The notes below the pieces were generated by a model. The model was not told the origin of the DNA. It ran no database searches and saw only the letters and a list, made by a program, of their open reading frames with translations. Below, piece by piece: positions 1,354 through 64,000 of a stretch of DNA of 64,000 bases. Source of the stretch: Halichondria panicea (Eukaryota > Porifera > Demospongiae > Suberitida > Halichondriidae); contig NC_087377.1 of NCBI RefSeq assembly GCF_963675165.1, positions 7,147,122 through 7,211,121 on the forward strand, given 5' to 3'. The translations under genes and the position numbers were made by a program. The first letter of the stretch is position 1. Each line of letters opens with the position of its first letter.

Positions 1354-4304
1354 TTAATTAGTTTTCGGGAGCACATCCTCGTACTCATGAACTGGCTCAA
1401 TGCTCTCATACTCTCCCTCTATTGTTACCGGGGCTTGTGAGTTATCAATCCTCTGTCTCCGCGGTTTCTTTGTTTGCTCATAAGCAATGTTCTTCTTGAG
1501 TACTGGAGCATAAGCTTCGTTGGTCTGCTCAATTCCTGGAAACGTTGAGCACCAATGCACTTGTCCGCCTGACTCGGGAGCTTGAATAGTTACTGCGCAT
1601 GAAGGTCAATGTATTTGTATCTAGCAACGTATATGACTTAAATTATTATTTACCTTCATTTTGCATCTTTTTTCTTTTTTTTAGACAAATTACACCAACA
1701 ACAATGACTACAAGCAATAGCAGAATCACCACCACAGTTATCCCTGTTATAAATTATATAGGTGTATTTTAGCTACACATTTAATACTATTTGCTTTACC
1801 AGCTATTACTCCGGGCAATGGAAATTGGGACCCAGTAACAGGTGGGGGATCGGTAGGAGACAAAGTAGAAGGTGCACCTGTACACAACACAGTAAACTGT
1901 AACGAAAATGAGCTACCAAATACGCTTACTTGTTGGTGGATTGAGTTGCCTAATGAGTGATACCTTCCCGTCGAAGATGAACTGTGAGCTATTCCAAGAG
2001 TAGACTATCACATGGCCATTAGCAAAGGTGTCACTGACAGAGAAGCTCGTTGAACTTGCAAATGAGTCAATGAGAGCAACTAAAATTCTGTCGAGATTGA
2101 TGGTAGACTGAAACAAAACAAGACAAACGACATCAGAATCAGCACAAGTCACTTGTGCATCTCCATTTGGCAATTTTGTGACAGAAACACCCTCACTACT
2201 GGGAGGTTGTCCTAAAAAAGGAATAATTATAACAAGTGATAATGAAAAAGGATACTAATTTTAGCGAATTTGTAATTAACTCTAAATTATGTCCGCGTTA
2301 ATAAATTCTTTTTTCAATGAAAATGTACCTCTAAGAGTATGCTAAACAAGCTAGCCCTTTTTTCAGATATAGATATCTAACTCCAAACTTTCTATTCAAC
2401 CTTAAAACTCGTACATCTTTTGACACAACTATTGTGCTAATGAATTGCTGTTGTAAATCTGGCTAAAACAGTACCCTAAAACAGAGAAAATCTGAAAATG
2501 CTTCCCATTCTTAATAGTAACCTTTAGGTAGACATGTGCAAAAATACCTCCATCTCCCGAGGACACCGCAACAGATATATTCCCGCTGTCAGCTGCAATT
2601 GAGATGGGCATTCTCGGCAGAGAATTGCATTCAAAATCAAACGTCATCACACTGTAGTTTCCACTGGGAACAGCTAATATTGTGAAATTGTCACTCCTGC
2701 TACGAGGTATGGTCATTACTTTTATGTTAGTAAAATCCAACTCTCCATCAATGATACGTATCACACAGACAAGAGCTCCGGGAGAGAGGGTACCTTCAAC
2801 ATACTCAATGCTAACACTAATACAACCACCACCAGGGCATTCAGACACCAGGATTTCTTGAACGTCAAATGTACCTGATAGATAATTATATCATCAAAAT
2901 ACACATGATAGGCTGAGCCGCTCACTGATTTTAATGTTCTCAAACACGAGGTCTATTCCATTCTCATCAGTCAGTGTGACACTGTATTCTGTCATCTTGT
3001 CAGTGGGGAGGGAGAAACTGAGTGAGCCATCAAACAAAGAGTCCGTGATTGAACCGCTGATGGAGGGAGTCAATAGGTCAGAGTCCACACGATACCAAGT
3101 GAACCTTGTACAACTGGGTATCTGGAGAACGTTAGTATGTATGTGTATATCTCACCAACTATAAAAGAACTCACGATGGCTTTAAACCCTACTGACTTAT
3201 TGTCCCCACTTTCACGAATACGATGTGGTTCTTTAGTGCTACCTGCACAATGTAGAAGTGTAACAAGCAGCGTGTATATGTTATAGTACACTATACACAC
3301 CTTCTACCCTTGTAAAGAACCCGGTAACTGGTTCACTGGTTCTTCCCCTCATCTCTCCTTCAGTAGGAGTCACGGTGAAGGAGAATCTGTCACACACACT
3401 GATGGGGTTGGAATACGTGAAGATGTACTCATTAACAAGTCCACACTCAGAATCGAGAACAACTGTTTGAGTTGAGTCGAGTGTTGTCGTGTTGATGTCC
3501 ACACAGTACTCAGTGAGGGGTAGAGCATTCCACATCACAGTGATGGTATTTGGAGCAGTCAGAACATTAGTGATTACCGTTTCTAGGGAAATGCCTACAA
3601 AATCTTACATAAATTATAGTTACTAATTCACCATGAACAGTTAGAGTTGCTGTGGTCGATATTTCAGACCTTACAGTATCAAAGCCATTTGTGATCAGAG
3701 CCCGACACTAAACAACAGAGTTGTTGTGCTGTGGAGTGGCCAAAATTGTCAGTGTGGCTGGTCTACCAGGGGATGAAGGTCGACGTACTCTAACAATTTC
3801 TGTATCTGCTCCGGATATGGTATTGTTTATTGCCCAATCATAAGTAACAAAGAATCCCTCCACTTGATACTGACAACTGAACACTGCCTCCAGTCCCTCG
3901 GATCTCTCCACTGACAATGGCTGTAACTGTGAACTGAGCTGTGAGAAATAAGAACAAACACAATAAATGTACAATATATAGACTAGCTCTCGCTATTCCG
4001 GCTCTCTGAAGTACGGAATATACCGGCCATTACTCTATAGTGTATATAGCGAGTATATTTTGAGGGTATAAATGTTCGCTTTTGGAAAGGTTTTTGCTGA
4101 TTTAATTTTCGTGGAATAGCGCAAATTCGCGGTACATGCCTAATCTGCGAAAACCGCAAACATTTATACCATCGAAACATTCCTGCTATACGGTGAGCGT
4201 TTGAAATATTGATAACTTTACTGCCAAATTAACTTACCTTTTACAGCTATGATGAATGACCCTATCATAAAAAAGAAAGTGAATGATGTCAAACTCTTGT
4301 CCAT
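1354..4304 (-). pseudogene. R1: Ig/FN3 type I receptor gene with disrupted Ig exon
   Basis: Exons from 5' to 3': signal 4238-4304, Ig 3632-3938, FN3 3301-3582, J 3175-3242, A 2926-3121, B 2548-2874, C 1930-2211, linker 1800-1877, TM 1654-1743, tail 1354-1592. There is no 15-nt microexon. The signal exon starts MDKSLTSF and has a hydrophobic core. The Ig exon is 307 nt: it has one extra base near 3925 compared with its paralogs, and Gln before the F-strand Cys is TAG (3708-3710). All other exons are in frame. Because the Ig exon is phase 1-1, skipping it would leave a 542-residue Ig-less receptor. The tail keeps YAPV, YEQT, YESI and YEDV but ends early (LPKTN), without the C-terminal YVNV. It is a pseudogene, or a gene expressed only as an Ig-less form; an assembly error cannot be excluded. 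Confidence 0.78.
4020..4196. repeat. MITE with GAGGGTATAAATGTTCGC ends (R1 first intron)
   Basis: The left arm (AGCGAGTATATTTTGAGGGTATAAATG) and right arm (CATTTATACC...GCTATACGGT) are inverted repeats. Further copies lie at about 8815-8968, 33595-33720, 51917-52093 and 58318-58445. There is no coding capacity. Confidence 0.7.
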
Positions 4305-4496
4305 CAGATCATGAGTGTATATCTACATGTACTAAGCTTTGTGGAAGAATAAGATTTAGTTTATCCATGCATATCTGTGTACAGCTACAACACAAATTCA
4401 ATGTACAATCTCTTCCATGTATTTACTCACCTATTTACTGACACATACACATAGATAAATTAATGCCATGACATACTGAAACTGTCCTATTCATAG

Positions 4497-6179: not shown

Positions 6180-9100
6180 TCAGTTAACGTTAACATAAAC
6201 ATAATTTGCACGACTTGCTTTTCCCTGAGGAAAAACATCCTCGTACTCATGAACTGGCTCAATGCTTTCATACTCTCCCTCTGTTGTTGCCGGGGTTTGT
6301 GAATTATTGATCCTCTGTCCCCGTGGTTTCTTTGTTTGCTCATAGGCAATGTTCCTCTTGAGTACTGAAGCATAAGCTTCGTTGGGCTGTTCAATTCCTG
6401 CAAACGTTGATGACCAATCCACTCTTCCATCTGACTCTGGAACCTCAACTGCATGTCAATTGTTCAAGACAAGTTAACGAAAGATTTAGGTACCTTCATT
6501 GTGTCTCCGTTTCCTTAAAATCACAACGACAGTTCCAACAGCTGTGACCACAAGCAATACCAGAATCACTAAACCTAAAAATGTTAGCCATATATTTAGA
6601 GTGCACCCCTTAACCTTAACCAGAGTCCATTGACTTACCTGCTATAGCTGCTGCTGTGACAGTGAATGGAGAGAATCATTATGATACACTTTTATAGCAC
6701 TAGAAACCTACCAGCGATAACTGATATTGGCAGGGACTCAATATTAGGAGGAGGTGGGTCTGTTTGTGGATCAGACGTTGGAGGTGTAGTGGGAGCAGCT
6801 GCAACAGAAATCGAGGAGGAGGAATAAGTAATTGTCAGTTCTGATAATCTACAGAGGCACTTACTGGTGAGTAGATCCAATTGTATAATGAAGGATACCT
6901 CTCCTTCAAAGATGGACTCCAAACTATTCCAAGAGTACACCACCACATAGCCATCACCATAGTCCTTCTTCAGAGAAAGGACAGTTGAATTATATGTTGA
7001 GTTGATGAAACCGACAATCACTCCGTCCAAAATGGTGGTGGAGGATTGGAACAAGACTAGACAACTCAGGGCAGAGTCAGAGCAGGTCACTTCAACACTT
7101 CCATTTGTTAACTTCGTTGCACTAATGCCCTTACTGGGTGGTGGACTGGTACTTCCTACAATGAAGAGTGATCACATGATGGACCTTACGATATAAAAAC
7201 GAAGTATGTACCTTCACCACCAGTGGTGGCCATCGTCATATTCTTAACATCTGCTGCCATTGAGATGGGAATTCTTGGTAAAGAACTATTCTCCAGATCA
7301 AAAGTTATCATTGTGTAACTTCCACTGGGAACAGGTATGGTGAAATTCTCACTCCTGCTACGAGGGATAGTGACCAATCTCATACTAGCAAAATTCAACT
7401 ATCCATCAATGATACGTATCACACAGACAAGAGCTCCGGGAGAGACAGTACCTTCAACATACACAATGTTCAAACAAAGATCACCACCACCAGGACATTC
7501 AGACACTAGGAGGTCTTGAACATCAAATGTACCTGATAGAGACACATTTTTATCTGTTAAAATGAACGTGATTGACTCACTGATTGGAATATTTTCAAAC
7601 ACGAGGTCTATTCCATTCTCATCAGTCAGTGTGACACTGTATTCTGTCATCTTGTCAGTGGGGAGGGAGAAACTGAGTGAGCCATCAAACAGAAGAGGGT
7701 CCGTGATTGGAAGGTTGATTGGGGTAGTCAATAGGTCAGAGTCCACATGATACCGAGTGAACCTTGTGCAACTTGGTATCTGGAGAACGATAGTATGCAA
7801 GTGTCGTTCTCAATTGACTATAAAATTACTCACAATGGCTTTAAACCCTACTGACTTATTCTCCTCACTTTCACGAACACGATGTCGTTCTTCAATACTA
7901 CCTGCACAATATAGAAGTGTAACAAGCAGCGTAATAATTGAAGGACAGAGACACTTTCCATACAAGTGAGCGATCTTTTATAAGACGAATACATTACACA
8001 GATAATAACTTATAACAAGACATGAGATTATGTTAGAGTGCACCATACACACCTTCTGCCCTCGTAAAGAACCCAGTAACTGGTTCACTGGTTGTTCCCC
8101 TCATCTCTCCTTCAGTAGGAGTCACAGTGAAGGAGAATCTGTCACACACACTGATGGGGTTGGAGTACGTGAAGATGTACTCCATTAACCAGTCCACACA
8201 CAGAATCAAAAACAACTGTTTGAGTTGATTCCAGAGTTGTACTGTTGATGTCCACACAATACTCAGTGAGAGGTAGAGCATTCCATGTCACGGTAATGGT
8301 GTTTGGAGCAGTCAGAACATTAGTGATGACCGTTCCTACAGGGAAATGCCTACAAAACCTTACACACATAATTATAGTTACTACTCACCATGAACAGTTA
8401 GAGTTGCTGTGATCGATACTTCAGACCTTACAATAAAAATGCCATTTCTGATTACAGCCAGACACTGAACAACAGAGTTGTCGTGCTGTGGAGTGGTCAA
8501 GATTGTCAGTGTAGTTGTACCACCAGGAGATGAAGGTCGACGAGCTCTAACAGTTTCTGAATCTGCTCCAACAAAGGAATTGTTTATTGCCCAATCATAA
8601 GTAACAGTCAATCCCTCCACTTGATACTGACACCAGAACACTGCCTCCAGTCCCTCGGTGCTCTCCACTGACTCTGGCTGTATTGTGAACTGAGCTGTGA
8701 GAAATAAGAACAAACACAACAAATGTACAATAATTATATAGACTAGCTCTCGCTATTCCGGCTCTCTGAAGTACGGCCACATCAATATAATTATATACCG
8801 GCCATTACTCTAGCGTATAGCGAGTATATGTTATTTCGAGGGTATAAATGTTCGCTTTTGGAAAGGTTTTCGCGGAATAGCGCATACATGCGATGTTATA
8901 AATTCACGGTACATGCCTAATCCGCGAAAACTACGAACATTATACCCTCGAAATATACCCACTATAATTATGGTATTGAATTTGGCCACTGTACACTCAA
9001 GGTAGGTTAAGGCTGTTTTTTTCTTGAAATTGAAGGAAAGTGTACTATAGAACTACCATTTTTTGTAAAAAAAATCTTTCCGTAAACATGAATACCATTC

Positions 9101-11071
9101 ATCTGATAACATTATTATATCTTGTTATGTGCGTTAACTGTGACCAAATATGACTTACCAATAGTTTTTTCAATGCTGCCTCCAATATCAAGTTGTAAAA
9201 AGCAAAATTGGTATCAAAAGAAAGCGAGATCTACTAGAAACAATGTGGATATTTGGTGTGAGCGCATTTTAGACCTGATTATAGTAACTTTATTGAGAAA
9301 AAAATGCTCAAAAAACGTGAAAATTTATGACATGTATGCTTACTGTACAAAATACGTGATAGCAGTCCTCTATATCCACTTGGTTTCTATTGCACTGTTA
9401 GTAAAAGCTTTCTTTTGATACTAAGATTGTACCATGAACGTGATTATTGGAGGCAGCATTCTTTGGTTAAAGTAAATAGCAAGTTAACGTACACAACAAG
9501 GCAGTAACAATGACAACAATGTTATCATCCTGATCCGTTTTATGTATCTAATATGAATCCCGAATAAAAAGGTACACATGCAATGAAACCATTACACAAT
9601 GACAATAAATAGACTGCAATGCACCCTCATTTATGGCCTATAATTATATTTTTGAAACGGCCTTAACCAACCTCGCATGGAAAGGATTGCTAGCTAGATG
9701 TTTTTACTGCACAAAATTCACCCATAAGTAGTGACATAATTATAATTATACAACGTAAACAACGATTTCAAAAAGTCGAGTAGCTATAGACATACAGTAA
9801 TTACTGGCAAACTTTAACAGCAAAAATCTGATATGCCAACACAATGGTATAAGTAACAGTTAACAATGACAACAATGTTATCATCCTGATCCGTTTTATG
9901 TATCTAATATGAATCCCGAATAAAAAGGTACACATGCAATGAAACCATTACACAATGACAATTGACAATAAATAGAATCTTCAATCTCTTTCATTGTAAC
10001 ACCACAAATATCACTACAAGTATGTGATGTATTTCTAAACAAACCTCATGTATACAGACTATAATTATGTGCAAGTGGAAATGTACATGTATAGCTACAT
10101 GCAATTTGACTTAATTGTACAGTGTCAAATGCAATGATTAATAGAGTAAGCCAAGCGACACACATTTTCAGGGAGAGACACTAAGAGATTGAGAGTCATT
10201 GTATGTAAAAATAGACATGATCAAGTATCATGCCTAGAAGTAATCCGGCCGCTTTACTCGTACACATCAGTAATTTAAAGTCGGTGGTTCAAATACTCAA
10301 TAATCGATATTTTCAACCTATTGCCCTATTGCCGACTATATACAGCTGTGAAAGTTCTATAAGCTTTGCTAGAGACATATGGGGTACCCGCCATACCTCA
10401 TACTATTATATGATGCTCAGAACAAAGGCAAAAGCATGTAAAATAGGCTAAACTGCTGAGTTAGCATGATTTGTTACATATGACGCAAAAACCTGATGCA
10501 ATCTAACTCAGCCTGAGTCTATTTTGCCATAGCCTTTTTCCTTTGTTTTATACACTTTTGAGCATCGTATGAGGCAAGGCGGGTACATACTGAATCTCCT
10601 CGTAGTTTTTTCACAAATGGCGCCCAATATTGAGAATTGACTACCATGTGTTCAACATCACTTTGTGAAAAAACTATAATTATTTATGACTAAATATTCT
10701 AGAAAGGCTAGGCTCTATGTGTAGGTGCTATACATGCAGATGCCAGTAGATATCGCTCTGGAAGCAAAAAAGTGACTGCGTCCGACAATGAGGTAAACGG
10801 CCGACACTTCGGACTATCATCAAACCTCTTTTAGTAGCTATATATACATATCTCTGCTGCAGGGTCTTTTGTATGTAGGACATTTTCAGGCCTTCACATG
10901 CACAAAAGTTGAAAAGTCTAGAGTTACAGCAGGTTGTTTTGTGAGTGTCTGATTTTTATAGAGACGGCCAAATATTGATAAGTTATACTGCCAAATTAAC
11001 TTACCTTTTACAGCTATGATGAATGACCCTATCATAAAAAAGAAAGTGAATGATGTCAAACTCTTGTCCAT
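6180..11071 (-). CDS. R2: Ig/FN3 tyrosine-tail receptor, FN3 exon frameshifted
   Basis: Exons: signal 11005-11071, Ig 8389-8694, FN3 8053-8335, J 7834-7901, A 7581-7779, B 7212-7532, C 6865-7155, linker 6712-6798, microexon 6639-6653, TM 6495-6575, tail 6180-6448. The Ig domain has the B-strand Cys (FWCQYQ), the core Trp (YDWAINN) and the F-strand Cys (VVQC). The FN3 exon is 283 nt instead of 282: an extra C near 8182 shifts the frame after CGLVN. That exon is phase 1-1, so skipping it restores an open receptor. The TM helix (LVILVLLVVTAVGTVVVVIL) is followed by RKRR. The tail carries YASV, YEQT, YESI, YEDV and YVNV. The first intron is 2.3 kb and holds transposon remains. It is a likely recent pseudogene, or an FN3-less isoform. 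Confidence 0.8.
9001..9673. mobile_element. Transposon-like insertion in R2 first intron
   Basis: The ends are inverted repeats (GGTAGGTTAAGGCTGTTT at 9001 and AACGGCCTTAACCAACC near 9657-9673). An inner inverted pair, ATGCTGCCTCCAAT and ATTGGAGGCAGCAT, lies near 9173 and 9447. The R8 intron has the uninterrupted flanks (58448-58480), so this is an empty-site comparison. No transposase is seen. Confidence 0.6.
9503..9975. repeat. 110-bp direct repeat pair in R2 first intron
   Basis: A segment with ATGACAACAATGTTATCATCC is present at about 9509-9618 and again at 9866-9970, almost unchanged. The equivalent place in R8 lacks it. Confidence 0.7.
10381..10587. repeat. Foldback MITE (R2 first intron)
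   Basis: Imperfect inverted arms of about 90-100 bp (GGGTACCCGCCATACCTCATA ... GAGGCAAGGCGGGTAC). A second copy lies at 59046-59270 in the R8 intron at the same relative place, which supports common descent of R2 and R8. Confidence 0.75.
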
Positions 11072-13338: not shown

Positions 13339-16300
13339 TCAGTTAACGTTAACATAATTTGCACGACTTGCTTTTCCCTGAGGCAACACATCCTCATACA
13401 CATGAACTGGCTCAATACTCTCATAATGTCCCTCTGTTGTTGCCGGGGCTTGTGAGTCATCGATCCTTTGTCCCCGTGGTTTCTTTGTCTGCTCATAGGC
13501 AATGTTCCTCGTCAGTACTGAAGCATAAGCTTCGTTGGGCTGCTCAATTCCTGCAAATGTTGATGACCAATCCACTCTTCCATCTGACTCTGGAACCTCA
13601 ACTGCATGTCAATTGTTCAAGACAAGTTAACCATTGATTTAGGTATACCTGCATTTTGTCTCTGTTTTCTTAAAATCACAACGACAGTTCCAACAGCGGT
13701 GACCACAAGCAATAGCAGAATCACCAAACCTAAAAATGTATAATTTTATGTTAGCCATTCTTTTAGAGTACGTACCTTAACCCAGTAATCGGTAAATATT
13801 CACAAACTGATGGTTTATCATAAATTATGCTATTCTATTCTATACAAACTATTCAGTGCTCTATAGGTGCATTGACTTACCAGCTATAGCTGCTGCTGTG
13901 ACAATGAATGGATAGAATCATTATAATGATACACTTTACAGCACTAGAAACCTACCAGCGATAACTGATGTCAGCAGGGACTCTATATCAGGAGGAGGTG
14001 GGTCTGTTTGTGGATCAGATGTTGGAGGTGTAGTGGGAGCAGCTGCAACAGAAATGATGAGGCGGAATAAGTGATTGTCAGTTCTGATAATCTACAGAGG
14101 CACTTACAGGTGGGTAGATCCAGTTGTATAATGAGCAATACCTCTCCTTCAAAGATGGACTGTGAACTATTCCAAGAGTACACCACCACATAGCCATCAC
14201 CAAAAGTGTCCTTTAAAGAGATGATAGTTGAGACTTCAGAAGAGTTGATGAAACCGACAATCACTCTGTCCAAGATGGTGGATTGGAACAAGACTAGACA
14301 ATTCAGGGCAGAGTCACAGCAGGTCACTTCAACCTCTGCATTTGTTAACTTGGTAGCACTAATACTCTCTCTGGGTGGTGGACTGGTAATGTCTATGGTG
14401 AAGTAAATGACAATTCTTATATAGTCTCTATAATGCAGAGCAAAAACACACGGAGCACTCACCTTCACCAGTCGAGTTCACTGTCATCTTGTTTTGACTG
14501 AGTGCTACCATGGAGATGGGCATTCTTGGTAAATGGTTGCTCTCCAGATCAAAAGTAATCACTCGGTATTCTCCACTAGGAACAGGAATGGTGAAAATTT
14601 CACTTGAATTCCGAGGGATGGTGACAAGTTTTATGTCAAACACTCCATTAATAATACGAACTGCACAGACGAGAGCTCCGGGAGAGAGGGTACCTTCAAC
14701 ATACACAATGCTCACACAAATACCACCACCACCAGGACATTCAGACACTAGGAGGTCTTGAACGTCAAATGTACCTGATAGAGATGATTATTAAAATGAA
14801 CATGCATCATTGAACTCACTGATTGAAATGTTCTCAAACACGAGGTCTATTCCATTCTCATCAGTCAGTGTGACACTGTATTCTGTCATCTTGTCAGTGG
14901 GGAGGGAGAAACTGAGTGAGCCATCAAACAGAAAAGGGTCCGTGATTGGAAGGTTGATGGAGGGAGTCAATAGGTCAGAGTCCACACAATACCGAGTGAA
15001 CTTTATACAACTTGGAACCTAGAATTTTATGAGAGAACTCAACAAACTAAAATGCATTCTTAACAACAAAACAAACAATTAAAATCGAATCACTCACAGT
15101 TGCCCTAAATTTGACTAATTTATTCCTTTTATTTTCAAGAATACGATGTTGTTCTCCACTACCTGCATAATATTATAGAACTGTAATACTATTATTATGG
15201 TATAAACACACCTTCTACTATCGTAAATAACCCAGTACATAATTCACTGGTTGTTCCTCTCATCTCTCCATCAATAGGAGTCACAGTGAATCTGGCACAC
15301 ACACTGTTATCAGAGTACATGAAGACGTACTCATTAGTCAGTCCACACACAGAATCGATAACAACTGTTTCAGTTGAGTCTAGAGTTGACTCGGTGATGT
15401 CCACACAGTAGTTAGTGAGGGGTAGAGCATTCCATGTCACGGTAATGGTGTTTAGAGCAACAATAAGATGAGTGAGGACCGTCTCTAATGTATATAAGAA
15501 TAAGAAAAGAAAATTATGCTGAGACAATCAAGAAATGGACTCACCACAAACAACTCGAGATGCTGTGGATGAAATCACAAATGTATGATCAGGGCCACTT
15601 CTGATACCAGCCTCACAATACACAACAGAGTTGTTGTGCTGTGGAGTGGCCATGATTGTCAGTGTGGTTGGTCCACCAGGAGATGAAGGTCGACGTACTC
15701 TAACAGTTTCTGTATCTGCTCCGACAAAGAAATTGTTTATAAACCAATCATACGACACATCGAATCCCTCGGCTTGATACTGACAACTGAACACTGCCTC
15801 CAGTCCCTCGGCTCTCTCCACTGACACTGGCTGCACTGTGAACTGAGCTGTGAGAAAATATTGGCACACAGACGTCGTTATAGTTACTGTACTTAACGAA
15901 AAGTATGAGCCTGACCTACACAATCATAATTATAAGTTGTGGTCAATCATTTTGTCTAAATTAGCAATAAAATATGTAAAAATTTATTGTGCTTCAGTAC
16001 TTTATTCAGGAAATTTAAAAGTACAATACACACCATGCAGAACTTTGACAGCACACAATTAAATTTTATATGTATCGGTGCAGTATTGTGTACGTAGTCA
16101 AACATTCTGGGGTCGAGATTCAGGGGAGACAATAATTATGGCTCGCACACACACACACAAAAACGTAAGCTGGTATAAACATTTGGTGAATAAATTTCGT
16201 GGGTTGACTCGTTACCGAAAGCCAAGCAGATAATTAAAGAACAGTTTTCGTCAAATTAATTGTTGTGTATATAGGATTGCGCTAACCCACGAAAAAACAG

Positions 16301-48401: not shown

Positions 48402-50637
48402 CATTTTGTCTCCATTTTCTTAAAATCACTACGACAGTTACAACAGTGGTGACCACAAGCAATAGCAGAATCACCAAACCTAAAAATGTATATGTTAGCC
48501 ATTCTTTTAGAGTACCTTAACCCTGTAAACGGTAAATATTCACAAACTGATGGTTTATCATAAATTATGCTATTTTATTCCATATGCTATTTTATTCTAT
48601 ACAAACTAATCAGTGCTCTGTCCTACATGTTGGCCATATTTAGAGTTAACCTTAACCAGAGTCCATTGACTTACCAGCTATAGCTGCTGCTGTGACAGTG
48701 AATGGAGAGAATCATTATGATACACTTTTATAGTATTAGAACCTACCAGCGATAACTGATGTCAGCAGAGACTCCATATCAGGAGGAGGTGGGTCTGTTT
48801 GTGGATCAGAAGTTGGAGGTGTAGTGGGAGCAGCTGCAATGAAAAAATCAATGGATGATGTTAGCTCTGATAATCTACAGAGGCACTTACTGGTGGGTGG
48901 ATCCAGTTGTATAATGAGTGATGCCTTCCCTTCAAAGATGGACTGTGAACTATTCCAAGAGTACACCACCACATAGCCATCACCATAGTCCTTCTTCAGA
49001 GAGAGGACAGTCGAGTGAGTTGATGAAACCAACAATCACTCTGTCCAAGATGGTGGTGGATTGGAACAAGACTAGACAACTCAGGGCAGAGTCAGAGCAG
49101 GTTACTTCAACACTTTCATTTGGTAACTTCATTGCACTAATGCCCTCACTAGATGGTGGACTAGTAGGGTCTACAATGAAGAGTGCATATAAATATTGAG
49201 ACTACATAATGGTCCTTACGATATAAATAACGTGATGAAGTACGTACCTTCACCACCAGTGTTGGCCATCATCATATTCTTAACATCTGCTGCCATTGAG
49301 ATGGGAATTCTTGGTAAAGAACTATTCTCCAGATCAAAAGCTATCACTCTGTAACTTCCACTAGGAACAGGTATGGTGAAATTCTCACTCCTGCTACGAG
49401 GGATAGTGACCAATCTCATACTAGCAAAATCCAACTCTTCATCAATGATACGTAACACACAGACAAGAGCTCCGGGAGAGAGGGTACCTTCAACATACTC
49501 AATACTCACACAAATACCATCACCACCAGGACATTCAGACACTAGGAGGTCTTGAACATCAAATGTACCTGGTAGAGACACCTTTTTTATCTGTTCAAAT
49601 GAACGTGATTGACTCACTGATCGGAATGTTCTCAAACACAAGGTCTGTTCCATTCTCATCAGTCAGTGTGACACTGTATTCTGTCATCTTGTCAGTGGGG
49701 AGGGAGAAACTGAGTGAGCCATCAAACAGAAGAGGGTCCGTGATTGAACGGTTGATGGAGGGAGTCAATAGGTCAGAGTCCACACGATACCGAGTGAACC
49801 TTGTACAACTGGGTATCTGGAGAACGTTAGTATGCATGTGTGCATGTGTAAATCTCAACTGACTATAAAATTACTCACAGTGGCTTTAAACCCTACTGAC
49901 TTATTCTCCCCACTTTCACGAATACGATTTCGTTCTTCAATACTACCTGCACAATGTAGAATTGTAACAAGCAGCGTATATATGTTAGAGTGCACCATAC
50001 ACACCTTCTGCCCTCGTAAAGAACCCAGTAACTGGTTCACTGGTTGTTCCCCTCATCTCTCCTTCAGTAGGAGTCAGAGTGAAGGAGAATCTGTCACACA
50101 CACTGATGGGGTTGGAGTACGTGAAGATGTACTCATTAGCCAGTCCACACACATAATCAAGAACAACTGTTTGAGTGGAGTCGAGAATTGTCCTGGTGAT
50201 GTCCACACAGTACTCAGTGAGGGGTAGAGCATTCCATGTCACGGTAATGGTGTTTGGAGCAGTCAGAACATTAGTGATTACCGTTCCTATAGGGAAATAC
50301 CTACAAAACCTTATACACAGTACTAACTCACCATGAACAGTTAGAGTAGCTGTGATCGATACTTCAGACCTTACAGTAATCATGCCATTTCTGATTGTAG
50401 CCTGACACTGAACAACAGAGTGGTCGTGCTGTGGAGTGGCCAAGATTATCAGTGTGGCTGGTCCACCAGAGGATGAAGGTGGACGTACTCTAACAGTTTC
50501 TGTATCTGTTGAGACTATAGAATTGTTTATTGCCCAATGATAAGTAACAAAGAATCCCTCCACTTGATACTGACACTTGAACACTGCCTCCAGTCCCTCA
50601 GCTCTCTCCATTGACAATGGCTGTTCTGTGAACTGAG

Positions 50638-53600
50638 CTGTGAGAAAATATTGGCATGCAGACGTCGTTATGGGTTACTGTACTTTATTAAGAGTATAAT
50701 TGTATTCATTATGAGCCTGACTACACAATAAGTAATGATCAATTTTTTCCACATCACTATAATTAGATCTATGTCTAGAGTATGGCTAAGAGTGCAAATG
50801 GGATTAATAGCAATGGCAAGGATACTAATTGCACGAGGCATAGCCGAGTGCTATTAACCTTGCCAGTGCTTGTTATGAGTGCTATTAATCCCTTATTGCA
50901 CGAGTAGCCATACTATTGATTGTTAATCGTTTGTGATGCAGTTATAAAGACATTTTTAGCTGCAGTTTCAGTAAGTTTCAGTAAAAAAATTAGCTGCGGC
51001 TGTTATTCGAACGTGCGGTCGTCAAGGCAGTAATTGCACGTCGTTAATGACGACGTGCAATTACTGCCTTGACGACGTGCAATTACTGATACGCGATTAA
51101 TCACTGTACGAATCACAGTGAATAATAGGACAACATGCGATTAGCAATAATTTGTGTTTCAGCAGTTCATTCAGGTAATTTATTACACAACAGATCTACA
51201 TGTATTATATACGATAGTCACACATTCCGGGATTGAGATTCCTGGGAGATAATAATTATAGGCTAGAACACACACTGACAATTACCGTAAGCCGGTAAAA
51301 GCATTTCGTTGAATAAACTTTGTGGCTTGACTGCTTACCGGAAGCATTCTCAGGCCATGCCTTTTAATCTTTGCATTGTTATATCGAATTGCTAATTAAC
51401 CCACGAAAACAGCAAACATTAAGCCCCTCGAACATTTTGCGCTATATATTATGTGTATTGGGTTTCGATTGCAAATTGCGAATTTTGCAAATGAAAGAGA
51501 GATCTGACTCGCATACAATTAGCATGCTTCACTTCACTACGCAATAGTTACAGCTTATACATTACGCACTCGAACTCGGTCATACAATAGATAGTAAAGG
51601 GATTGGAAACGCATCACGTGCACCAATGTTTTCAATAGAGTCTGGATGGTACAATCCTACTTACGATTTTCATGTTAGTCAAGAGGTCATTTGCTGTTTT
51701 CTAAGCTTTATTTTTGACCTCAAGATCATTCTTTCCGCCAATCAGCTATTTGGGTACAAAAGCTTTCCAATGGTAGTGGTGCCATAAAGTTTGGGTGGTG
51801 TAGTGTACCCAAAAAGTGTTTTCAACTTTAAAAGTTAGGGTGAGTTGTTTGCAGAAGCATTATTGCTCAATAAATTGTAGATTGGTCACGTCAGATAATC
51901 TTGTTCTTGATACACCGTATAGTGGGTATATTTCAAGGGTATAAACTTTCATTTTCGCGGAATAGGAGCCTTTCTGCAGCATGCATGCTTGCGATATTAA
52001 ATTCGTGGGTATAAATGTTCGCGGTACATGCTTGATCAGCAAAAACCGCGAACATTTTTATACCCTCGAAATATACCCGCTATATACGGTATAGCATAAT
52101 TTATAAGCCTCATAATTATTGCATGGTCCTGAATTTAATGAGTTACACTCCTAAATTTTCGGTACTGTAATTAAACAACTTTTTTTTAAAGTGATTTAAT
52201 TAATTGTCTTTTTAGGATGTGAAGTAAAAAGCTCGTAAGAAAAGGTGCAAGTCAGATCCAACTCTCTCTTCAACAAAACAAATTAGAAAGACATAAATTC
52301 AACATGTCATCCATAAGACACGTAGTAACCTCACCTTATTATTAAGTATACGTGCATGTTAGTTTTATGCTTTTGTGTACACCGTAGTTTTTGTTTCTCT
52401 CTGTGAATCCACTATAATTATAACATATTCCATAAAGTGCAGTATACACTTATGATTAGTCAAGACTCATACAAAGGGACTTCAATAAAGTATAATAATA
52501 AATATAATTATACATTTTTTGTCGTGTTTATGTAATTCTAGCTTTTTTGCTGATATGGATGCCATCATGTAGCCTCGATTTCATGCCGCAATGAAGAGCC
52601 TGTAACCGAGACTAACATCAGTAAGTAGGATTGAGACATATGACGAAATGAGTTTCTAATCCCTTTTCTTTACTATCTATGCATAATTATATACAAACGT
52701 AAACAATACGTACTGAATCTCGTCGTAGTTTTTTCATAAATGGCGCTGTGATATTGAGAACTTGACTATACCATGTGTTCAACACCACTTTGTAAAAAAC
52801 TAGGAGATTCACTATAATTATGGCTAAAATTCTAGAAAGGCTAGGCTCTATATGTGTATATCTGATATACAGATGCCAGTACATTATAGTTCTGGAAGCA
52901 AAAAAGTGACCGTCCGACAATTGAGGTGAACGTTAATTAAACCTCTTTCAGTAGCTATATCTCTGCTGCAGCTGTTTTTTTTGGTGTAGCTGTAGTAGGA
53001 CAGGTGAAAGCCTTCACTTAGCCTCAATCCCAGGCCGCTCTTCCTCGAAGAGAGGGCCTGGTATCGACTGCTTGCGCATGCACTAACCATTAGCCAGATA
53101 CCGGCTAACGCAAGATAACAACGTGTATGCTCAGTAAAACAACGACGTCACAACGAACGGAAGTCGATTGAAGGAAGTACAGTAGGCTCAGTCAACCTTT
53201 GGACCATGCAGCTTGGCTGGAATAGCGAGGTGGCTGTATTTCGGGAAATAGCCGCGGCTTAAAACCGACCTTACCTCGAATCTAATGACTAATTTTGCGG
53301 TTCTTGTCTCAAGGATAATGTCAAGGATAATGAAGGATAATGAATCATTTGTTCTCTATTTAATTGTAATTCAATTTTATTTGCTAAACCACACCCAAAA
53401 CTTCACTCATATCCGGCCGTAATACATTACATCGAAAACCTTGTTTGGGACAGCCAGCACTGGCTGGTGTACGGAATAGCGAGTGGCCGTACTTCAGGGT
53501 GAGTTTTGTGCAGTAAACATATAGCTAGCATTCCGTGCAAAGCCAAATGGCCAGGTATATCGAGGTGGACGTACTTCAGAGAGCCGGAATAGCGAGTGTC

Positions 53601-53836
53601 TACAAAGTTCGATTGAAGGTTTCTAGCCCATCTGAGAAAAAGCTGATAGCTACCCGTAGCCTGCTATACCCTGTAGTGATAACAACACATGTACTGTACA
53701 CACTTAGTCAATCTAATCAAAGTGGTGCTAAATGTTGCAAGAATATACATGTCACGAGTGCAGCAGGTTGTTTAGTGAGGGTCCTATTTTTAGAGACGGC
53801 AGAATATTGATAAGTTATACTGTCAAATTAACTTAC
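50638..53836 (-). other. R7 first intron (3.2 kb)
   Basis: 50945-51140 repeats the left end of the window. 51587-52680 is bounded by inverted ends ATAGATAGTAAAGGGATT and AATCCCTTTTCTTTACTATCTAT, a probable transposon, and contains a MITE (51917-52093). 52700-53000 matches the R2 and R8 introns. No coding sequence seen. Confidence 0.55.
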
Positions 53837-54075
53837 CTTTTACAGCTATGATGAATGACCCTATCATAAAAAAGAATGTCAAACTCTTGTCCATCAGATC
53901 ATGAGTGTAGATCTACATGTGCTAAGCTGTGTGGAAGAAGATTTAGTTTAGCCATGCATATCTATGTACAGCTACAACACAAATTCAATGTACAATCTCT
54001 TCCATGCATTTACTCACCTATTTACTGACACAGATAAAGGTTGCTGACATTAATACCGAAAGTATATATTCATAG

Positions 54076-55774: not shown

Positions 55775-58700
55775 TCAGTTAACGTTAACATAATTTGCAC
55801 GACTTGCTTTTCCCTGAGGTAACACATCCTCGTACTCATGAACTGGGTCAATACTTTCATACTCTCCCTCTGTTGTTGCCGGGGTTTGTGAATCACTGAT
55901 CCTTTGTCCCCGTGGTTTCTTTGTCTGTTCATAGGCAATGTTCTTCTTGAGCTTGAGTACTGAAGCATAAGCTTCGTTGGGCTGTTCAATTCCTGCAAAC
56001 GTTGATGACCAATCCACTCTTCCATCTGACTCTGGAACCTCAACTGCATGTCAATTGTTCAAGACAAGTTAACGAATGATTAATTTTAGGTACCTTCATT
56101 TTTTCTCCGTTTCCTTAAAATCACAACGACAGTTCCAACAGCTGTGACCACAAGCAATACCAAAATCACTAAACCTAAAATTGTTAGCCATATTTAGAGT
56201 GCACCCCTTAACCCCTTAACCAGAGTCCATTGACTTACCTGCTATTGCTGCTGCTGTGACGTGACAGTGAATGAATCATTATGATACACTTTACAGCACT
56301 AGAAACCTACCAGTGATAACTGATGTTGGCAGGGACTTCATATCAGGAAGAGGTGGGCCTGTTTGTGGATCAGAAGTTGGAGGTGTAGTGGGAGCAGCTG
56401 CAATGAAAAAATCAATGGATGATGTTAGCTCTGATAATCTACAGAGGCACTTACTGGTGGGTGGATCCAGTTGTATAATGAGTGATGCCTTCCCTTCAAA
56501 GATGGACTGTGAACTATTCCAAGAGTACACCACCACATAGCCATCACCATAGTCCTTCTTCAGAGGGAGGACAGTTGAGTTATACGTTGAGTTGATGAAA
56601 CCAACAATCACTCTGTCCAAGATGGTGGTGGGTTGGAACAAAACTAGACAACTCAGGGCAGAGTCAGAGCAGGTTACTTCAACACTTCCATTTGGTAACT
56701 TGGTTGCACTAATGCCCTCACTGGGTGGTGGACTGGTACTTCCTACAATGAAGAGTGCATATAAATATTGAGACCACACGATGGTCCTTACGATATAAAT
56801 AACGTGATGAAGTACGTACCTTCACCACCAGTGTTGGCCATCGTCATATTCTTAACATCTGCTGCCATTGAGATGGGAATTCTTGGTAGAGAACTCTTCT
56901 CCAGATCAAAAGCTATCACTCTGTAACTTCCACTGGGAACAGGTATGGTGAAATTCTCACTCCTGCTACGAGGGATAGTGACCAATCTCATACTAGCAAT
57001 ATCCAACTCTCCATCAATGATACGTATCACAGAGACGAGAGCTCCGGGAGAGACAGTACCTTCAACATACACAATGCTCACACAAATACCACCACCAGGA
57101 CATTCAGACACTAGGAGGTCTTGAACATCAAATGTACCTGATAGAGACACATTTTTTATCTGCTCAAATGAACGTAATGTACTCACTGATTGAAACGTTC
57201 TCAAACACGAGGTCTATTCCATTCTCATCAGTCAGTGTGACACTGTATTCTGTCATCTTGTCAGTGGGGAGGGAGAAACTGAGTGAGCCATCAAACAGAA
57301 GAGGGTCCGTGATTGAACGGTCGATGGAGGGAGTCAATAAATCAGAGTCCACACGATACCGAGTGAACCTTGTACAACTGGGTATCTGGAGAACGTTAGT
57401 ATGTATGTGTGCATGTGTAAATCTCACCAACTATAAAATTACTCACAGTGGCTTTAAACCCTACTGACTTGTTGTCCCCACTTTCACGAATACGATGTCG
57501 TTCTTCAATACTACCTGCACAATGTAAAAATGTAACAAGGCAGCATGTATATATGTTAGAGTGCACCATACACACCTTCTGCCCTCGTAAAGAACCCAGT
57601 ATTTGGTTCACTGGTTGTTCCCCTCATCTCTCCATCAGTAGGAGTCACAGTGAAGGAGAATCTGTCACACATACTGATGGGGTTGGAGTACGTGAAGATG
57701 TACTCATTAGCCAATCCACACACAGAATCAAGAACAACTGTTTGTGTTGAGTCCAGAGTTGTCCTGTTGATGTCCACACAGTACTTAGTGAGGGGTAGAG
57801 CATTCCACATCACAGTAATAGTGTTTGTAGCATTCAGAACGTCAGTGATGATTGTTGCTATAGTGCAATGATTATTTGAAACGCCTTATGCACAGGAAGT
57901 TACTAGCTCACCATAAACTGTTAGAGTTGCTGTGATCGATAATTCAGACCTTACAATATCAAAGCCATTTCTGGTTGCAGCCCGACACTGAACAACGGAG
58001 TTGTTGTGCTGTGGAGTGGCCAATATTGTCAGTGTGGCTGGTTCACCAGGAGATGAAGGTGGACGTACTCTAACAGTTTCTGTATCTTCTCTGACTAAGG
58101 AATTGTTTATTGCCCAATCATAAGTAACAACGACTCCTTCCACTTGATACTGACACCTGAACACTGCCTCCAGTCCCTCAGCTCTCTCCACTGACACTGG
58201 CTGTACTGTGAACTGAGCTGTGAGAAATAAGAACAAACACAACAAATGTACAATAATTATATAGACTGCTCTCGCTATTCCGGCTCTCTGAAGTACAGAA
58301 TATACCGGCCATTACTCTAGCGTATATAGCGAGTATATTTCAAGGGTATAAATGTTTGCCTTTGGCGGATTTAATTTTCGTGGAATAGTGCATACATGCA
58401 ATATTAAATTCGCGGTACGTACTTAATCCACAAAAACCACAAACATCTTGAATTTGACCACTATACATGGCACGGATTGCTAGCTAGATGTTTACTGCAC
58501 AAAACTCGCCCATAAGTAGTGTAATTATACAACGTAAACAATGATTTCAAAAAGTCGAAGCTATAGGCATACAGTAATTACTGGCAAACTTTAACAGCAA
58601 AAATCCGATATGCCAACACAATGGTATAAGTAAGGCAGTTAACAACCACCTTCAATCTCTTTCATTGTAACACCACAAATATCACTACAAGTATGTGACG

Positions 58701-59750
58701 TATTTCTAAACAAACCTCATGTATACAGACTATAATTATGTGCAAGTCGAAATGTACATGTACATGCAATTTGACTTAATTGTACAGTGTCAAATGCAAT
58801 GATTAATAGAGTAAGCCAAGTGACACACATTTTCAGGGAGAGACACTAAGAGATTGAGAGTCATTGTATGTAAAAATAGACATGATCAAGTATCATGCCT
58901 AGAAGTAATCCGGCCGCTTTACTCGTACACATCAGTAGTTTAAAGTCGGTGGTTCAAATACTCAATAATCGATATTTTTAACCTATTGCCCTATTGCCGA
59001 CTAGCTGTACAGCTGTGAAAGTTCTATAAGCTTTGCTAGAGACCTATGGGGTACCAGCCATGCCTCATACTATTATATGATGCTCAGAACAAAGGCAAAA
59101 GCATGCAAAATAGGCTAAACTGCTGAGTTTGCATGATTTGTTCCATATGACGCAAAAACCTGATGCAATCTAATCATGCTAACTCAGCCTGAGTCTATTT
59201 TGCCGTAGCCTTTTTCCTTTGTTTTATACACTTCTGAGCATCGTATGAGGCAAGGCGGGTACATATTGAATCTCCTCGTAGTTTTTTCACAAATGGCGCC
59301 CAATATTGAGAATTGACTACCATGTGTTCAACATCACTTTGTGAAAAACTCTAATTATTTATGACTAAATATTCTAGAAAGGCTAGGCTCTATGTGTAGG
59401 TGCTATACATGCAGATGCCAATAGATATATCGCTCTGGAAGCAAAAAAGTGACTGCGTCCGACAATGAGGTAAACGGCCGACACTTCGGACTATCACCAA
59501 ACCTCTTTTAGTAGCTATATATACATATATCTCTGCTGCAGGATCTTTTGTATGTAGGACATTTTCAGGCCTTCACATGCACAAAAGTTGAAAAGTCTGG
59601 AGTTGCAGCAGGTTGTTTTGTGAGTGTCTGATTTTTATAGAGACGGCCAAATATTGATAAGTTATACTGCCAAATTAACTTACCTTTTACAGCTATGATG
59701 AATGACCCTATCATAAAAAAGAAAGTGAATGATGTCAAACTCTTGTCCAT
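55775..59750 (-). CDS. R8: intact Ig/FN3 type I receptor with tyrosine-motif tail (659 aa)
   Basis: Eleven exons, all in frame: signal 59684-59750, Ig 57912-58217, FN3 57576-57857, J 57447-57514, A 57187-57385, B 56820-57137, C 56455-56742, linker 56311-56397, microexon 56239-56253, TM 56094-56174, tail 55775-56043; total 1980 nt. Approximate residues: signal 1-22, Ig 23-124, FN3 125-218, J 219-241, A/B 242-413, C 414-509, linker 510-538, TM 539-565, tail 571-659. Ig has VFRCQYQ, YDWAINN and VVQC. The tail has YASV, YEQT, YESI, YEDV and YVNV. A second intact phase-1 signal exon lies upstream at 60969-61029, so two alternative starts are possible. The 1.5-kb first intron shares transposon remains with R2, its closest partner. 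Ligand and pathway are unknown. Confidence 0.88.
58218..59683 (-). other. R8 first intron
   Basis: MITE copy 58318-58445, foldback MITE 59046-59270; otherwise collinear with the R2 first intron apart from the R2-specific insertions. No coding sequence seen. Confidence 0.6.
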
Positions 59751-61532: not shown

Positions 61533-64000
61533 TCAGTTAATGTTAACATAATTTGCACGACTTGCTTTTCCCTGAGGTAACACATCCTCGTACACATGAA
61601 CTGGCTCAATGCTTTCATACTCTCCCTCTGTTGTTGCCGGGGCTTGTGAGTCATTGACCCTCTGTCCCCGTGGTTTCTTTGTCTGCTCATAGGCAATGTT
61701 CCTCTTGAGTACTGGAGCATAAGCTTCGTTGGGCTGTTCAATCTCTGCAAATGTTGATGACCAATCCACTCTTCTATCTGACTCTGGAACCTCAACTGCA
61801 TGTCAATTGTTCAAGATAAGTAAACAAAATTAATGATTTAGGTACCTTCATTTTGTCTCCGTTTCCTTAAAATCACAACGACAATTCCAACAGCGGTGAC
61901 CACAAGCAATAGCAGAATCACCAAACCTAAAAATGTACATGTTAGCCATTCTTTTAGAGTGTACCTTAACACGAAGTAAACAGTAGATAATCACAAACTG
62001 ATAGTGTATATAATCCTTTCGCGGTAAATAGAGTGTACCTTAACGGTAATAACCCAGTAAACGGTAAATATTCACAAACTGATGGTTTACATAATAATAA
62101 TAATTATATGCTATTTCATACAAACTAGTCAGTGCTCTGTAGATTGACTTACCAGTTATAGCTGCTGCTGTGACAGTGAATGGAGAGAATCATTATGATA
62201 CATTTTTACAGCACTAGAAACCTACCAGCGATAACTGATGTCAGCAGGGACTCCATATCAGGAGGAGTTGGGTCTGTTTGTGGATCAGACGTTGGAGGTA
62301 TAGTGGGAGCAGCTGTTGGACATGTAGTGGGAGCAGCTGTAATGAAAAAAGCAATGGATGATGTTAGCTCTGATAATCTACAGAGGCACTTACAGGTGAG
62401 TAGATCAAGTTGTATAATGAGCGATACTTCTCCTTCAAAGATGAACTCCAAACTATTCCAAGAGTACACCACCACATAGCCATCACCAAAGGTGTCATTT
62501 AAAGAGAGGACAGTTGAGGTCGAAGAAGCGTTGATGAAACCAACTAGTACTCTGTCCAAGATGATGGTGGATTGGAACAAGACTAGACAATTCAGGGCAG
62601 AGTCACAGCAGGTCACTTCAACCTCTCCATTTGTTAACTTGGTAGCACTAATACTCTCTCTGGGTGGTGGACTGGTAATGTCTACGGTAAATGACTATGA
62701 TTATAGCACAGCAATAACACATAGAGCACGTACCTTCACCAGTGGAGTTCACTGTCATAATGTCTTGACTTATTGCTACCATAGAGATGGGCATATTTGG
62801 TAAATGGTTGCTCTCCAGATCAAAAGCAATCACTCGGTATTCTCCACTAGAAACAGGAATGGTGAAATTCTCAATAGAATTCCGAGGGATGGTAACCAGT
62901 TTCATGTTAGCAAAATCAAGCACTCCAAGCACTTCATTAACGACACGTATCACACAGACGAGAGCTCCGGGAGAGAGGGTACCTTCAACATACTCAATGC
63001 TCACACAAATACCACCACCAGGACATTCAGACACTAGGAGGTCTTGAACATCAAATGTACCTGATAGAGATATTTATAAATGAACACGCCTCATTGAACT
63101 CACTGATTGAAATGTTCTCAAACACGAGATCTATTCCATTCTCATCAGTCAGTGTGACACTGTATTCTGTCATCTTGTCAGTGGGGAGGGAGAAACTGAG
63201 TGAGCCATCAAACAGAAGAGGGTCCGTAATTGGAAGGTCGATGGAGGGAGTCAATAGGTCAGAGTCCACACGATACCGAGTGAACCTTGTGCAACTTGGA
63301 ACCTAGAATATTATAGAGAGAACTCAAAATGCATTCTTAACAAACTAACGAACAACTAAAATTGAATCACTCACAGTTGCCCTAAATTTGACTAATTTAT
63401 TCCTTTTAGTTTCAAGAATACGATGTTGTTCTCCACTACCTGCATAATAATAGAAGTGTAATCCAACATTATGGTATAAACACACCTTCTGCCCTTGTAA
63501 ATAACCCAGTACATAATTCACTGGTTGTTCCCCTCATCTCTCCATCAGTAGGAGTCACAGTGAATCTGGCACACACACTGTTATCAGAGTACATGAAAAT
63601 GTACTCATTAGTGAATCCACACAGAGAATCGATAACAACTGTTTCAGTTGAGTCTAGAGTTGACTCGGTGATGTCCACACAGTAGTCAGTGAGGGGTAGA
63701 GCATTCCACATCACGGTAATGGTATTCGGTGCAACAATAAAGGGAGTGAGGACCGTCTCTAATTATGTGATAAGGAAAAAGAAAATAATTATGCTGAAAC
63801 AATCAAGATAATGACTCACCATGAACAACTAGAGATGCTGTGGATGAATCTGCTAAAGTAATATCAGTGCCATTTATGATAACAGCACTACAATACACAA
63901 TAGAGTTGTTGTGCTGTAAAGTGGCCAAGATTGTCAGTGTGGTTGATCCACCAGGAAATGAAGGTCGACGTGCTCTAATAGTTTCTGTATCTGGTCCCAC
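61533..64000 (-). CDS. R9: Ig/FN3 receptor with tyrosine-motif tail, 5' end outside window
   Basis: Visible exons, all in frame: Ig 63820 to beyond 64000 (partial), FN3 63486-63758, J 63375-63439, A 63104-63302, B 62734-63060, C 62394-62681, linker 62226-62336, microexon 62153-62167, TM 61846-61926, tail 61533-61795. FN3 and J have the shorter lengths (273 and 65 nt) shared with R3, its closest relative here. The linker is 24 nt longer than in the paralogs because of an internal duplication of the AAPT(C/I)PT segment. The microexon encodes AAAIT instead of AAAIA. The tail has YAPV, YEQT, YESI, YEDV and YVNI. The signal peptide and the N-terminal half of the Ig domain lie to the right of the window. 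Intact as far as it can be seen. Confidence 0.88.

What the first reader, a model, noticed from the sequence alone, without database searches (positions are those of the whole stretch)
1354..64000. Nine-copy tandem array of Ig/FN3 receptors with multi-tyrosine tails
Nine head-to-tail, same-strand genes share one exon plan: signal, Ig, FN3, unknown beta-rich modules, TM, tyrosine tail. The mix of open, tail-less and decayed copies, and ectodomains that differ more than tails (R6 against the rest), is the pattern of clustered recognition receptors such as cnidarian Alr, leukocyte receptor complexes and KIR. I know of no described sponge system with exactly this plan. The array continues beyond the right edge.
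Basis: partly seen in the sequence, partly recalled or inferred. Interest (0 to 1): 0.87.

Follow-up and report, generated by a model that had tools for sequence, protein, structure and literature searches.

The report
Sponge Ig receptor gene complex
The window is the middle of a large chromosome region in the breadcrumb sponge packed with copies of one kind of cell-surface receptor whose outer part varies while its inner signalling tail is kept alike or swapped, which is how clustered recognition receptors are built in other animals and makes it a good candidate for a sponge self/non-self or microbe-sensing system.

Summary
Confirmed and enlarged. The window (Halichondria panicea) holds nine minus-strand copies of one gene: signal peptide, Ig, FN3-like domain, beta modules, TM, multi-tyrosine tail. 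Copy H splices in silico (11 exons) to a clean 659-aa protein that matches NCBI LOC135339104 apart from the tail. Four copies read intact (C, E, H, I); five are broken. The array passes both edges: at least 48 such tail loci in 0.84 Mb, and 19 related ones at 3.44-3.70 Mb.

New here: (1) the same ectodomain also occurs on a second, long tail (YDV motifs, proline-rich, Death-like domain). (2) Tails of two anciently diverged subfamilies are alike at synonymous sites too (dS 0.14 against 0.8-1.2 in ectodomain exons), so tails are homogenised or swapped, not merely constrained. (3) Copy A is an alpha head on a gamma rear: genes recombine in blocks. (4) Ig dN/dS is about 1, other exons 0.5-0.7, with overlapping intervals.

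Best reading: a germline recognition-receptor complex that works like Alr or KIR clusters but is a member of neither. Ligand, expression and polymorphism are untested. New variant of a known kind.

The parts
1354..4304 (-). copy A: mosaic, alpha head (signal, Ig, FN3, M2a) on gamma rear (M2b, M3, TM, short tail); stop in Ig exon
   Evidence: NCBI models it only from FN3 on (P0008)
6180..11071 (-). copy B (alpha): frameshift in FN3, stop in M2b; tail open
13339..16696 (-). copy C (alpha): all ten exon types open with AG/GT borders
   Evidence: 15-nt exon seen; no database record for it among the 16
18042..21482 (-). copy D (beta): no signal exon found, M2b and M3 acceptors not found, stop in tail
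23030..27269 (-). copy E (alpha): intact; equals NCBI LOC135339104 isoform X3 (P0002); its tail exon is also the tail of isoform X5
35343..38973 (-). copy F (beta): frameshift in M3; tail open
47313..53894 (-). copy G (alpha): frameshift in M3; TM-exon donor destroyed by an inserted element
55775..59750 (-). copy H (alpha): intact reference copy, 11 exons, 659 aa
61533..64000 (-). copy I (alpha): intact; continues to 64842 right of the window; equals P0005 (source not shown)
59684..59750 (-). H exon 1, signal peptide MDKSLTSFTFFFMIGSFIIAVK
57912..58217 (-). H exon 2, Ig domain (Cys-Trp-Cys)
   Evidence: Pfam Ig_3 E 2.7e-4, I-set E 8.9e-4, both below cut-off; 11 PDB sequences at E<=0.01, ten antibody light chains and Dscam
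57576..57857 (-). H exon 3, FN3-like domain
   Evidence: (no Pfam)
57447..57514 (-). H exon 4 (E3), linker, phase 1 to 0
57187..57385 (-). H exon 5, module M2a
   Evidence: no Pfam
56820..57137 (-). H exon 6, module M2b; family-wide genome probe; fold not predicted
   Evidence: no Pfam
56455..56742 (-). H exon 7, module M3: predicted Ig/FN3-like beta sandwich
56311..56397 (-). H exon 8, Pro/Thr-rich stalk
56239..56253 (-). H exon 9, 15-nt mini exon
   Evidence: NCBI model P0001 carries the same residues
56094..56174 (-). H exon 10, transmembrane segment
55775..56043 (-). H exon 11, cytoplasmic tail with five tyrosines (YASV, YEQT, YESI, YEDV, YVNV)
47641..48401 (.). inserted element with 82-bp terminal inverted repeats (95%), flanked on both sides by CATTTTGTC, at the 3' border of G's TM exon

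Best explanation
The window is part of a roughly 0.84-Mb germline-encoded recognition-receptor complex. Each intact gene makes a type I membrane receptor: the Ig and FN3-like head binds a ligand (inferred), modules M2-M3 and the stalk hold it off the membrane (inferred), and the tail, which carries four to five conserved tyrosines, is phosphorylated and read by SH2 proteins (inferred). Other genes in the same complex put the same ectodomain on a long tail with YDV motifs, proline-rich stretches and a Death-like domain, so similar ligands can be coupled to two different outputs (architecture shown, signalling inferred). Diversity is made by tandem duplication, point change in the Ig exon, and recombination that exchanges head, rear and tail blocks between copies (mosaics shown); tails are homogenised among subfamilies by conversion or exchange (shown by synonymous divergence), which keeps the output common while heads drift apart. 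Whether the ligands are microbial, self/allogeneic or neighbouring cells cannot be told from the sequence; I put microbe or environment sensing a little above allorecognition.
For: Nine ordered copies in the window; 48 tail loci between C1:6.910 and 7.746 Mb, 43 of 48 with an M3 exon within 2.5 kb upstream on the same strand. Full splice model with signal peptide, TM and tail, matched by NCBI apart from the tail. Ig dN/dS 1.08 (bootstrap 0.74-1.61) against 0.51-0.68 in FN3, M2a, M2b, M3 and tail, over C, E, H, I and G's open exons; Ig loop codons carry more replacements than framework, seven alpha copies (permutation 2 of 2000). Tyrosines stand in 27, 26, 27 and 27 of 27 distinct readable tails at four sites, 20 of 27 at the fifth (the fetched rows among these come from loci that I chose, without stops). 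Tail dS alpha-beta 0.139 against 0.81-1.21 in ectodomain exons; beta tails not one clade (AU p 0.033) while M2b splits the two cleanly. A shares 89-100% with H up to M2a and 87-96% with K from M2b on. Second tail: P0010 Death domain E 2.4e-4; 11 tail-II loci in the complex, 9 with an M3 exon upstream (8 within 4.2 kb, one at 11.5 kb) and no tail I between. SH2 domains exist in the genome, 71 matches.
Against: No expression, ligand or population data. Ig dN/dS does not exceed 1 significantly, its interval overlaps those of the other exons (FN3 0.42-1.18, tail 0.23-1.07), and in the beta/gamma set it is 0.75 (three copies). Loop codons also have higher dS (0.300 against 0.152; 57 of 2000 two-sided), and I set the loop limits after seeing where variation lay, so relaxed selection or less conversion would do as well. 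Five of nine copies are broken, which also fits a decaying expansion. The Death match is just under Pfam's cut-off (21.6 against 22.6 bits) and a Death exon lies within 15 kb downstream of only 4 of 11 tail-II loci. No canonical ITIM or ITAM. In the tail tree most branches are weak, and its well-supported branches alone do not rule out one origin of beta tails.
Confidence: 0.68

Rival explanations
1. Allorecognition complex (a special case of the best reading): the same genes mediate self/non-self recognition of tissue in the sponge, with individuals differing in which heads they carry.
For: Size, clustering, mosaics and Ig divergence resemble the Hydractinia allorecognition complex (41 Alr genes; passage seen in PMC11999971). 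Sponges show graft recognition (recall). Paired outputs would suit fuse/reject decisions.
Against: No polymorphism, mapping or binding data; no homophilic interface tested; the family was found in H. panicea only, so no link to any mapped locus.
Confidence: 0.27
2. Cassette sharing: ectodomain copies with their own promoters are spliced over long distances onto one shared tail exon, as in protocadherin or UGT1A loci, so that one locus yields many heads on one tail.
For: NCBI LOC135339104 isoform X5 is all ten upstream exons of copy H joined to the tail exon of copy E, 33 kb away, skipping the tails of H, G and F; isoform X3 is copy E with the same tail. Tails are interchangeable in frame (phase 1) and alike.
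Against: Each of the nine copies keeps its own tail exon, and H's own tail is intact 50 nt after its TM exon with good splice sites. The tails are so alike that reads from other alleles could be aligned to the wrong copy, which would make such a model by mistake; I could not see the reads.
Confidence: 0.12
3. Adhesion or developmental receptors expanded by neutral tandem duplication, with relaxed selection on the Ig exon and no recognition role.
For: Five of nine copies broken; Ig dN/dS not above 1; [quoted passage not shown]
Against: Two tail types on one ectodomain; four tail tyrosines kept in 27 distinct tails with one exception at one site (selected tails); intact copies amid dead ones.
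Confidence: 0.22
4. Assembly artefact: collapsed or duplicated haplotypes made the array.
For: Repetitive region; some pairs of loci far apart have equal match scores, such as 7350752 and 7486147, so a few may be assembly duplicates.
Against: Long DNA matches between copies in the window are mostly 78-92% identical, copies carry distinct insertions, and they lie on an 18.1-Mb contig.
Confidence: 0.03

Closest known systems
Hydractinia symbiolongicarpus Alr genes (allorecognition complex)
   Same: Tandem IgSF receptors in one large complex with many paralogues (41 genes: PMC11999971 passage; the rest recall)
   Different: Here one Ig exon, an FN3-like domain and M2-M3 modules rather than tandem Alr Ig domains; a second tail type with a Death-like domain; phylum Porifera; allorecognition role untested
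KIR / LILR of the mammalian leukocyte receptor complex
   Same: Clustered, conversion-rich IgSF receptors in which similar ectodomains are coupled to different tails (recall)
   Different: No vertebrate relatives found at the sensitivity; no canonical ITIM; alternative output is a long Death-type tail, not a short tail with a charged TM
Molluscan CgIgIT2 (oyster Ig receptor with ITAM)
   Same: Invertebrate Ig receptor with a tyrosine signalling tail (PMC11999971 passage)
   Different: Five Ig domains and a classic ITAM (same passage); not part of such an array as far as I recall
Sponge Ig receptors: Geodia RTK and SAM proteins, Ig-TIR receptors
   Same: Sponge membrane proteins with Ig domains (Geodia: recall; Ig-TIR: PMC8242945 passage)
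   Different: No kinase or TIR domain found here
Protocadherin / UGT1A clusters
   Same: Two NCBI isoforms share one 3' exon between two upstream copies
   Different: Each copy here has its own 3' exon; shared use is unproven

Membership tests
Clustered germline IgSF recognition receptors (general kind) | tandem array of type I Ig receptors with signal peptide and TM | tested here: met
Clustered germline IgSF recognition receptors (general kind) | same ectodomain family with alternative cytoplasmic outputs | tested here: met
   (architecture only)
Clustered germline IgSF recognition receptors (general kind) | positive or balancing selection on the binding domain | tested here: inconclusive
   Ig dN/dS 1.08 (0.74-1.61) in alpha, 0.75 in beta/gamma; loops
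Clustered germline IgSF recognition receptors (general kind) | polymorphism between individuals and ligand binding | not testable with these tools
   one assembly only
Alr (cnidarian allorecognition) | sequence kinship to Alr genes | tested here: inconclusive
   only H. panicea proteins found, but the search is limited to relatives that share exact words
Alr (cnidarian allorecognition) | Alr-type tandem Ig ectodomain (recall) | tested here: not met
   one Ig exon followed by FN3-like and M2/M3 modules
KIR/LILR paired receptors | canonical ITIM ([ILVS]xYxx[ILV], recall) in the long tail | tested here: not met
   0 of 5 consensus tail tyrosines fit (residue -2 is E; I but T at +3; G; H; A), alignment
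ITAM receptors | Yxx[LI]-x6-8-Yxx[LI] (recall) | tested here: not met
   YESI-x5-YEDV: spacing 5 and V at the second +3
Sponge Ig-type receptor tyrosine kinases | cytoplasmic kinase domain | tested here: not met
   no kinase match in copy H or in six relatives, two of them with tail II
Protocadherin/UGT1A-type shared constant exon | several variable cassettes spliced to one shared 3' exon | tested here: inconclusive
   two NCBI isoforms share E's tail, but 9 of 9 copies hold a tail exon

The most novel reading that the evidence does not exclude
C1:6.91-7.75 Mb is the sponge's histocompatibility (allorecognition) complex: a modular set in which head, rear and tail blocks are recombined in the germ line, and the same heads are issued with either a phosphotyrosine tail or a Death-type tail, so that contact between individuals is scored by paired outputs; possibly with heads also spliced to a shared tail.
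Probability: 0.22. Interest if true: 0.95.

Novelty: new variant of a known kind. Interest (0 to 1): 0.74.

Why it matters
Sponge tissue recognition and microbe discrimination are known as phenomena (recall), but in the papers I could search I saw no mapped Ig receptor complex behind them. This locus gives a concrete candidate with coordinates, intact copies and testable predictions. It would show that clustered IgSF receptors with shared tails and paired outputs exist in Porifera, by independent origin or deep ancestry. Domain-based censuses could overlook it, since its Ig exon scores below Pfam's cut-off and the other exons of copy H tried score nothing.

Tried and rejected
Purifying selection as the sole cause of alike tails: rejected, because synonymous sites are equally alike between alpha and beta tails. 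Positive selection on Ig: not shown. Loss of tail exons in some copies: rejected. Novel fold for M3: not supported; it models as an Ig/FN3-like sandwich, though with weak matches. Relatives in other species: none found in three protein searches, one of them with the tail alone, but these score only candidates that share exact words. RNA families at gathering score: none in the window. PDB sequence search with the FN3 exons: none at E<=0.1. NCBIfam for three members: none at E<=0.01.

Limits and dropped rows. One search gave a first dN/dS table that included broken copies and, in M2b, a mis-hit from the left-flank copy; superseded. In one search the copy Lb rows for Ig, FN3 and M3 were dropped (my coordinates were out of frame), so alpha-beta values rest on J and F (Ig, FN3, tail), J, Lb and F (M2a, M2b) or J alone (M3). 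The intron and 3'-flank comparisons there include broken copies. In one search row A is misframed and row L065 is the same locus as J; I count 27 tails. Several fetched rows there end before the fifth tyrosine because I fetched only the matched stretch, so 20 of 27 is a lower bound for that site. In one search the alpha/beta labels of 13 fetched tails come from the M2b match nearest upstream. The 15-nt exon was checked in H and seen in C only; NCBI's model of E lacks it.

Literature: ten searches in open-licence PMC papers; I saw no description of this family in the listings, but subscription papers are not held. I saw passages of PMC8242945, PMC12345144 and PMC11999971; all others only as listings.

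Full report
Identity and place. The window is C1:7,147,122-7,211,121 of a 131-Mb, 39-contig genome. A protein spliced from it matches NCBI's LOC135339104 isoform X5 of Halichondria panicea at 98%, on a contig of the same length, 18,138,809 bases, and 653 of 659 residues of that record are found letter for letter in the window's exons. The organism is therefore the breadcrumb sponge (Demospongiae, Suberitida).

State of the copies. C, E, H and I are open from signal to stop with splice borders in place for the ten exon types checked; A, B, D, F and G are broken in the ways listed under the observation check. G's TM exon lost its donor to an element with 82-bp inverted repeats. Among the 16 database proteins there are full-length equivalents of E (P0002), I (P0005, source not shown) and K right of the window (P0013), partial ones of A (P0008) and J (P0015), and a full-length one of H with E's tail (P0001); none for C.

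Extent. Genome-wide exon searches (lower bounds) place 48 tail loci between C1:6.910 and 7.746 Mb, 23 on the minus and 25 on the plus strand; 43 of 48 have an M3 exon within 2.5 kb upstream on the same strand; 13 of 48 tails have a stop or are split. A sister cluster at C1:3.440-3.695 Mb has 19 related tail loci (42-70% identity); the copies that I read there (parts of six 10-kb stretches) mostly have an Ig-FN3-Ig-FN3 ectodomain, without M2/M3. Two copies lie on C2, and C8:4.48-4.54 Mb has the Ig-FN3-M2-M3 ectodomain with a tail related to tail II.

Subfamilies and mosaics. Alpha (B, C, E, G, H, I) and beta (D, F, and J and Lb outside the window) share 40-70% of bases in head and rear exons (H against J) but 92% in the tail. 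Copy A is 89-100% like H from signal to M2a, but 87-96% like copy K from M2b through M3, TM and tail; K in turn has a beta head (80-92% to J in signal, Ig and FN3). So heads, rears and tails recombine as blocks.

Tails. Among open exons, tail dS is 0.112 within alpha and 0.139 between alpha and beta, while ectodomain dS between alpha and beta is 0.81-1.21 (for the copies used see Tried and rejected). The last intron is on average 90% identical within alpha (15 pairs) but 56% between alpha and beta (18 pairs); the 250 nt after the stop show no alpha/beta split (means 0.67 within alpha, 21 pairs, and 0.68 between, 28 pairs; range 0.40-0.97). A tail tree does not keep beta together (AU p 0.033; two changes; most branches weak), whereas the M2b tree splits alpha and beta with full support. 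The alike block thus begins near the tail exon and in many pairs reaches into the 3' flank: conversion or exchange, with ordinary constraint (dN/dS about 0.5) on top. Four tyrosines stand in 27, 26, 27 and 27 of 27 distinct tails and the fifth (YVN[VI]) in 20 of 27 (rows A and L065 left out; fetched rows were chosen without stops). None fits canonical ITIM or ITAM (motifs recalled). YVNV has the pYxN form that Grb2-type SH2 domains take (recall). The genome has 71 SH2 matches.

Two outputs. P0010 and P0011 carry the same ectodomain on a long tail with YDV-type motifs and proline-rich stretches; P0010 ends in a Death domain (E 2.4e-4, 1 bit under cut-off; P0011's model ends before that part). 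In the genome 11 loci of this tail lie inside the complex; 9 have an M3 exon upstream on the same strand (8 within 4.2 kb, one at 11.5 kb) with no tail I between; a Death exon match lies downstream within 15 kb in 4 of the 11, one of them partial and one with a stop. This is the layout of paired receptors: like heads, unlike signals.

Selection. Over C, E, H, I and G's open exons dN/dS is 1.08 (0.74-1.61) for Ig, 0.68 (0.42-1.18) FN3, 0.54 M2a, 0.51 M2b, 0.57 M3 (four copies), 0.51 (0.23-1.07) tail; in the beta/gamma set Ig is 0.75 (0.39-1.49; three copies) and the tail 0.29. Ig loop codons of seven alpha copies carry more replacements than framework (0.339 against 0.145; 2 of 2000 permutations), but their dS is higher too (0.300 against 0.152; 57 of 2000), and loop limits were set after seeing the variation, so this shows a variable Ig, not proven positive selection.

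A puzzle. NCBI's isoform X5 joins ten exons of H to E's tail, 33 kb on, past the tails of H, G and F; X3 is E with the same tail. Either tails are shared by long-range splicing or reads from near-identical tails were misplaced. H's own tail is intact and 50 nt away, so I favour the second, at about 7 to 1.

Mechanism and verdict. Shown: architecture, extent, mosaics, tail homogenisation, two tail types. Inferred: ligand binding by the head, phosphorylation of the tail, Death-type signalling. Not testable here: ligand, expression, polymorphism. One earlier study of immune receptors in this sponge worked from a de novo transcriptome without a genome and classed receptors by conserved domains (PMC8242945, passages); the exons here lie below Pfam's cut-offs, so such a count could miss them. 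I saw no description of the family in the ten searches named under Tried and rejected. I file it as a new variant of clustered IgSF recognition receptors.

Noticed in passing
window 28836-32988: Ty3/gypsy-type LTR element on the plus strand between copies E and F: one 1285-aa gag-pol frame (RT, RNase H, integrase) and two 146-bp ends that are 100% identical, hence a recent insertion.
   Followed up: partly
window 47641-48401: Short element with 82-bp terminal inverted repeats (95%), flanked on both sides by CATTTTGTC, sitting at the TM exon border of copy G.
   Followed up: partly
window 12825-12875, 34830-34883, 42748-42804, 45965-46012, 60970-61029: Extra signal-peptide-like exons without a gene of their own directly downstream; relics of duplication or alternative first exons.
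   Followed up: no
window 40300-41280 and 39758-40029: Tandem repeats of 345 bp (2.8 copies) and 130 bp (2.2 copies) between copies F and G.
   Followed up: no
right of the window, G000:C1:7236475-7238647: Plus-strand pieces of the Death-type tail with no M3 exon within 12 kb upstream, inside a minus-strand part of the array.
   Followed up: no
G000:C8:4482000-4536000 (L049-L051): A third, more distant set of Ig-FN3-M2-M3 receptors with a multi-YDV tail and Death-like exons.
   Followed up: partly
P0017 (LOC135339333 isoform X2): NCBI model in which the stalk is joined straight to the tail without a TM segment; would be soluble or cytosolic if real.
   Followed up: no
G000:C1:7350752-7351066 and 7486147-7486461: Pairs of loci with equal match scores about 135 kb apart, also 7364959 and 7687562 about 320 kb apart: recent large duplications or assembly duplicates.
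   Followed up: no
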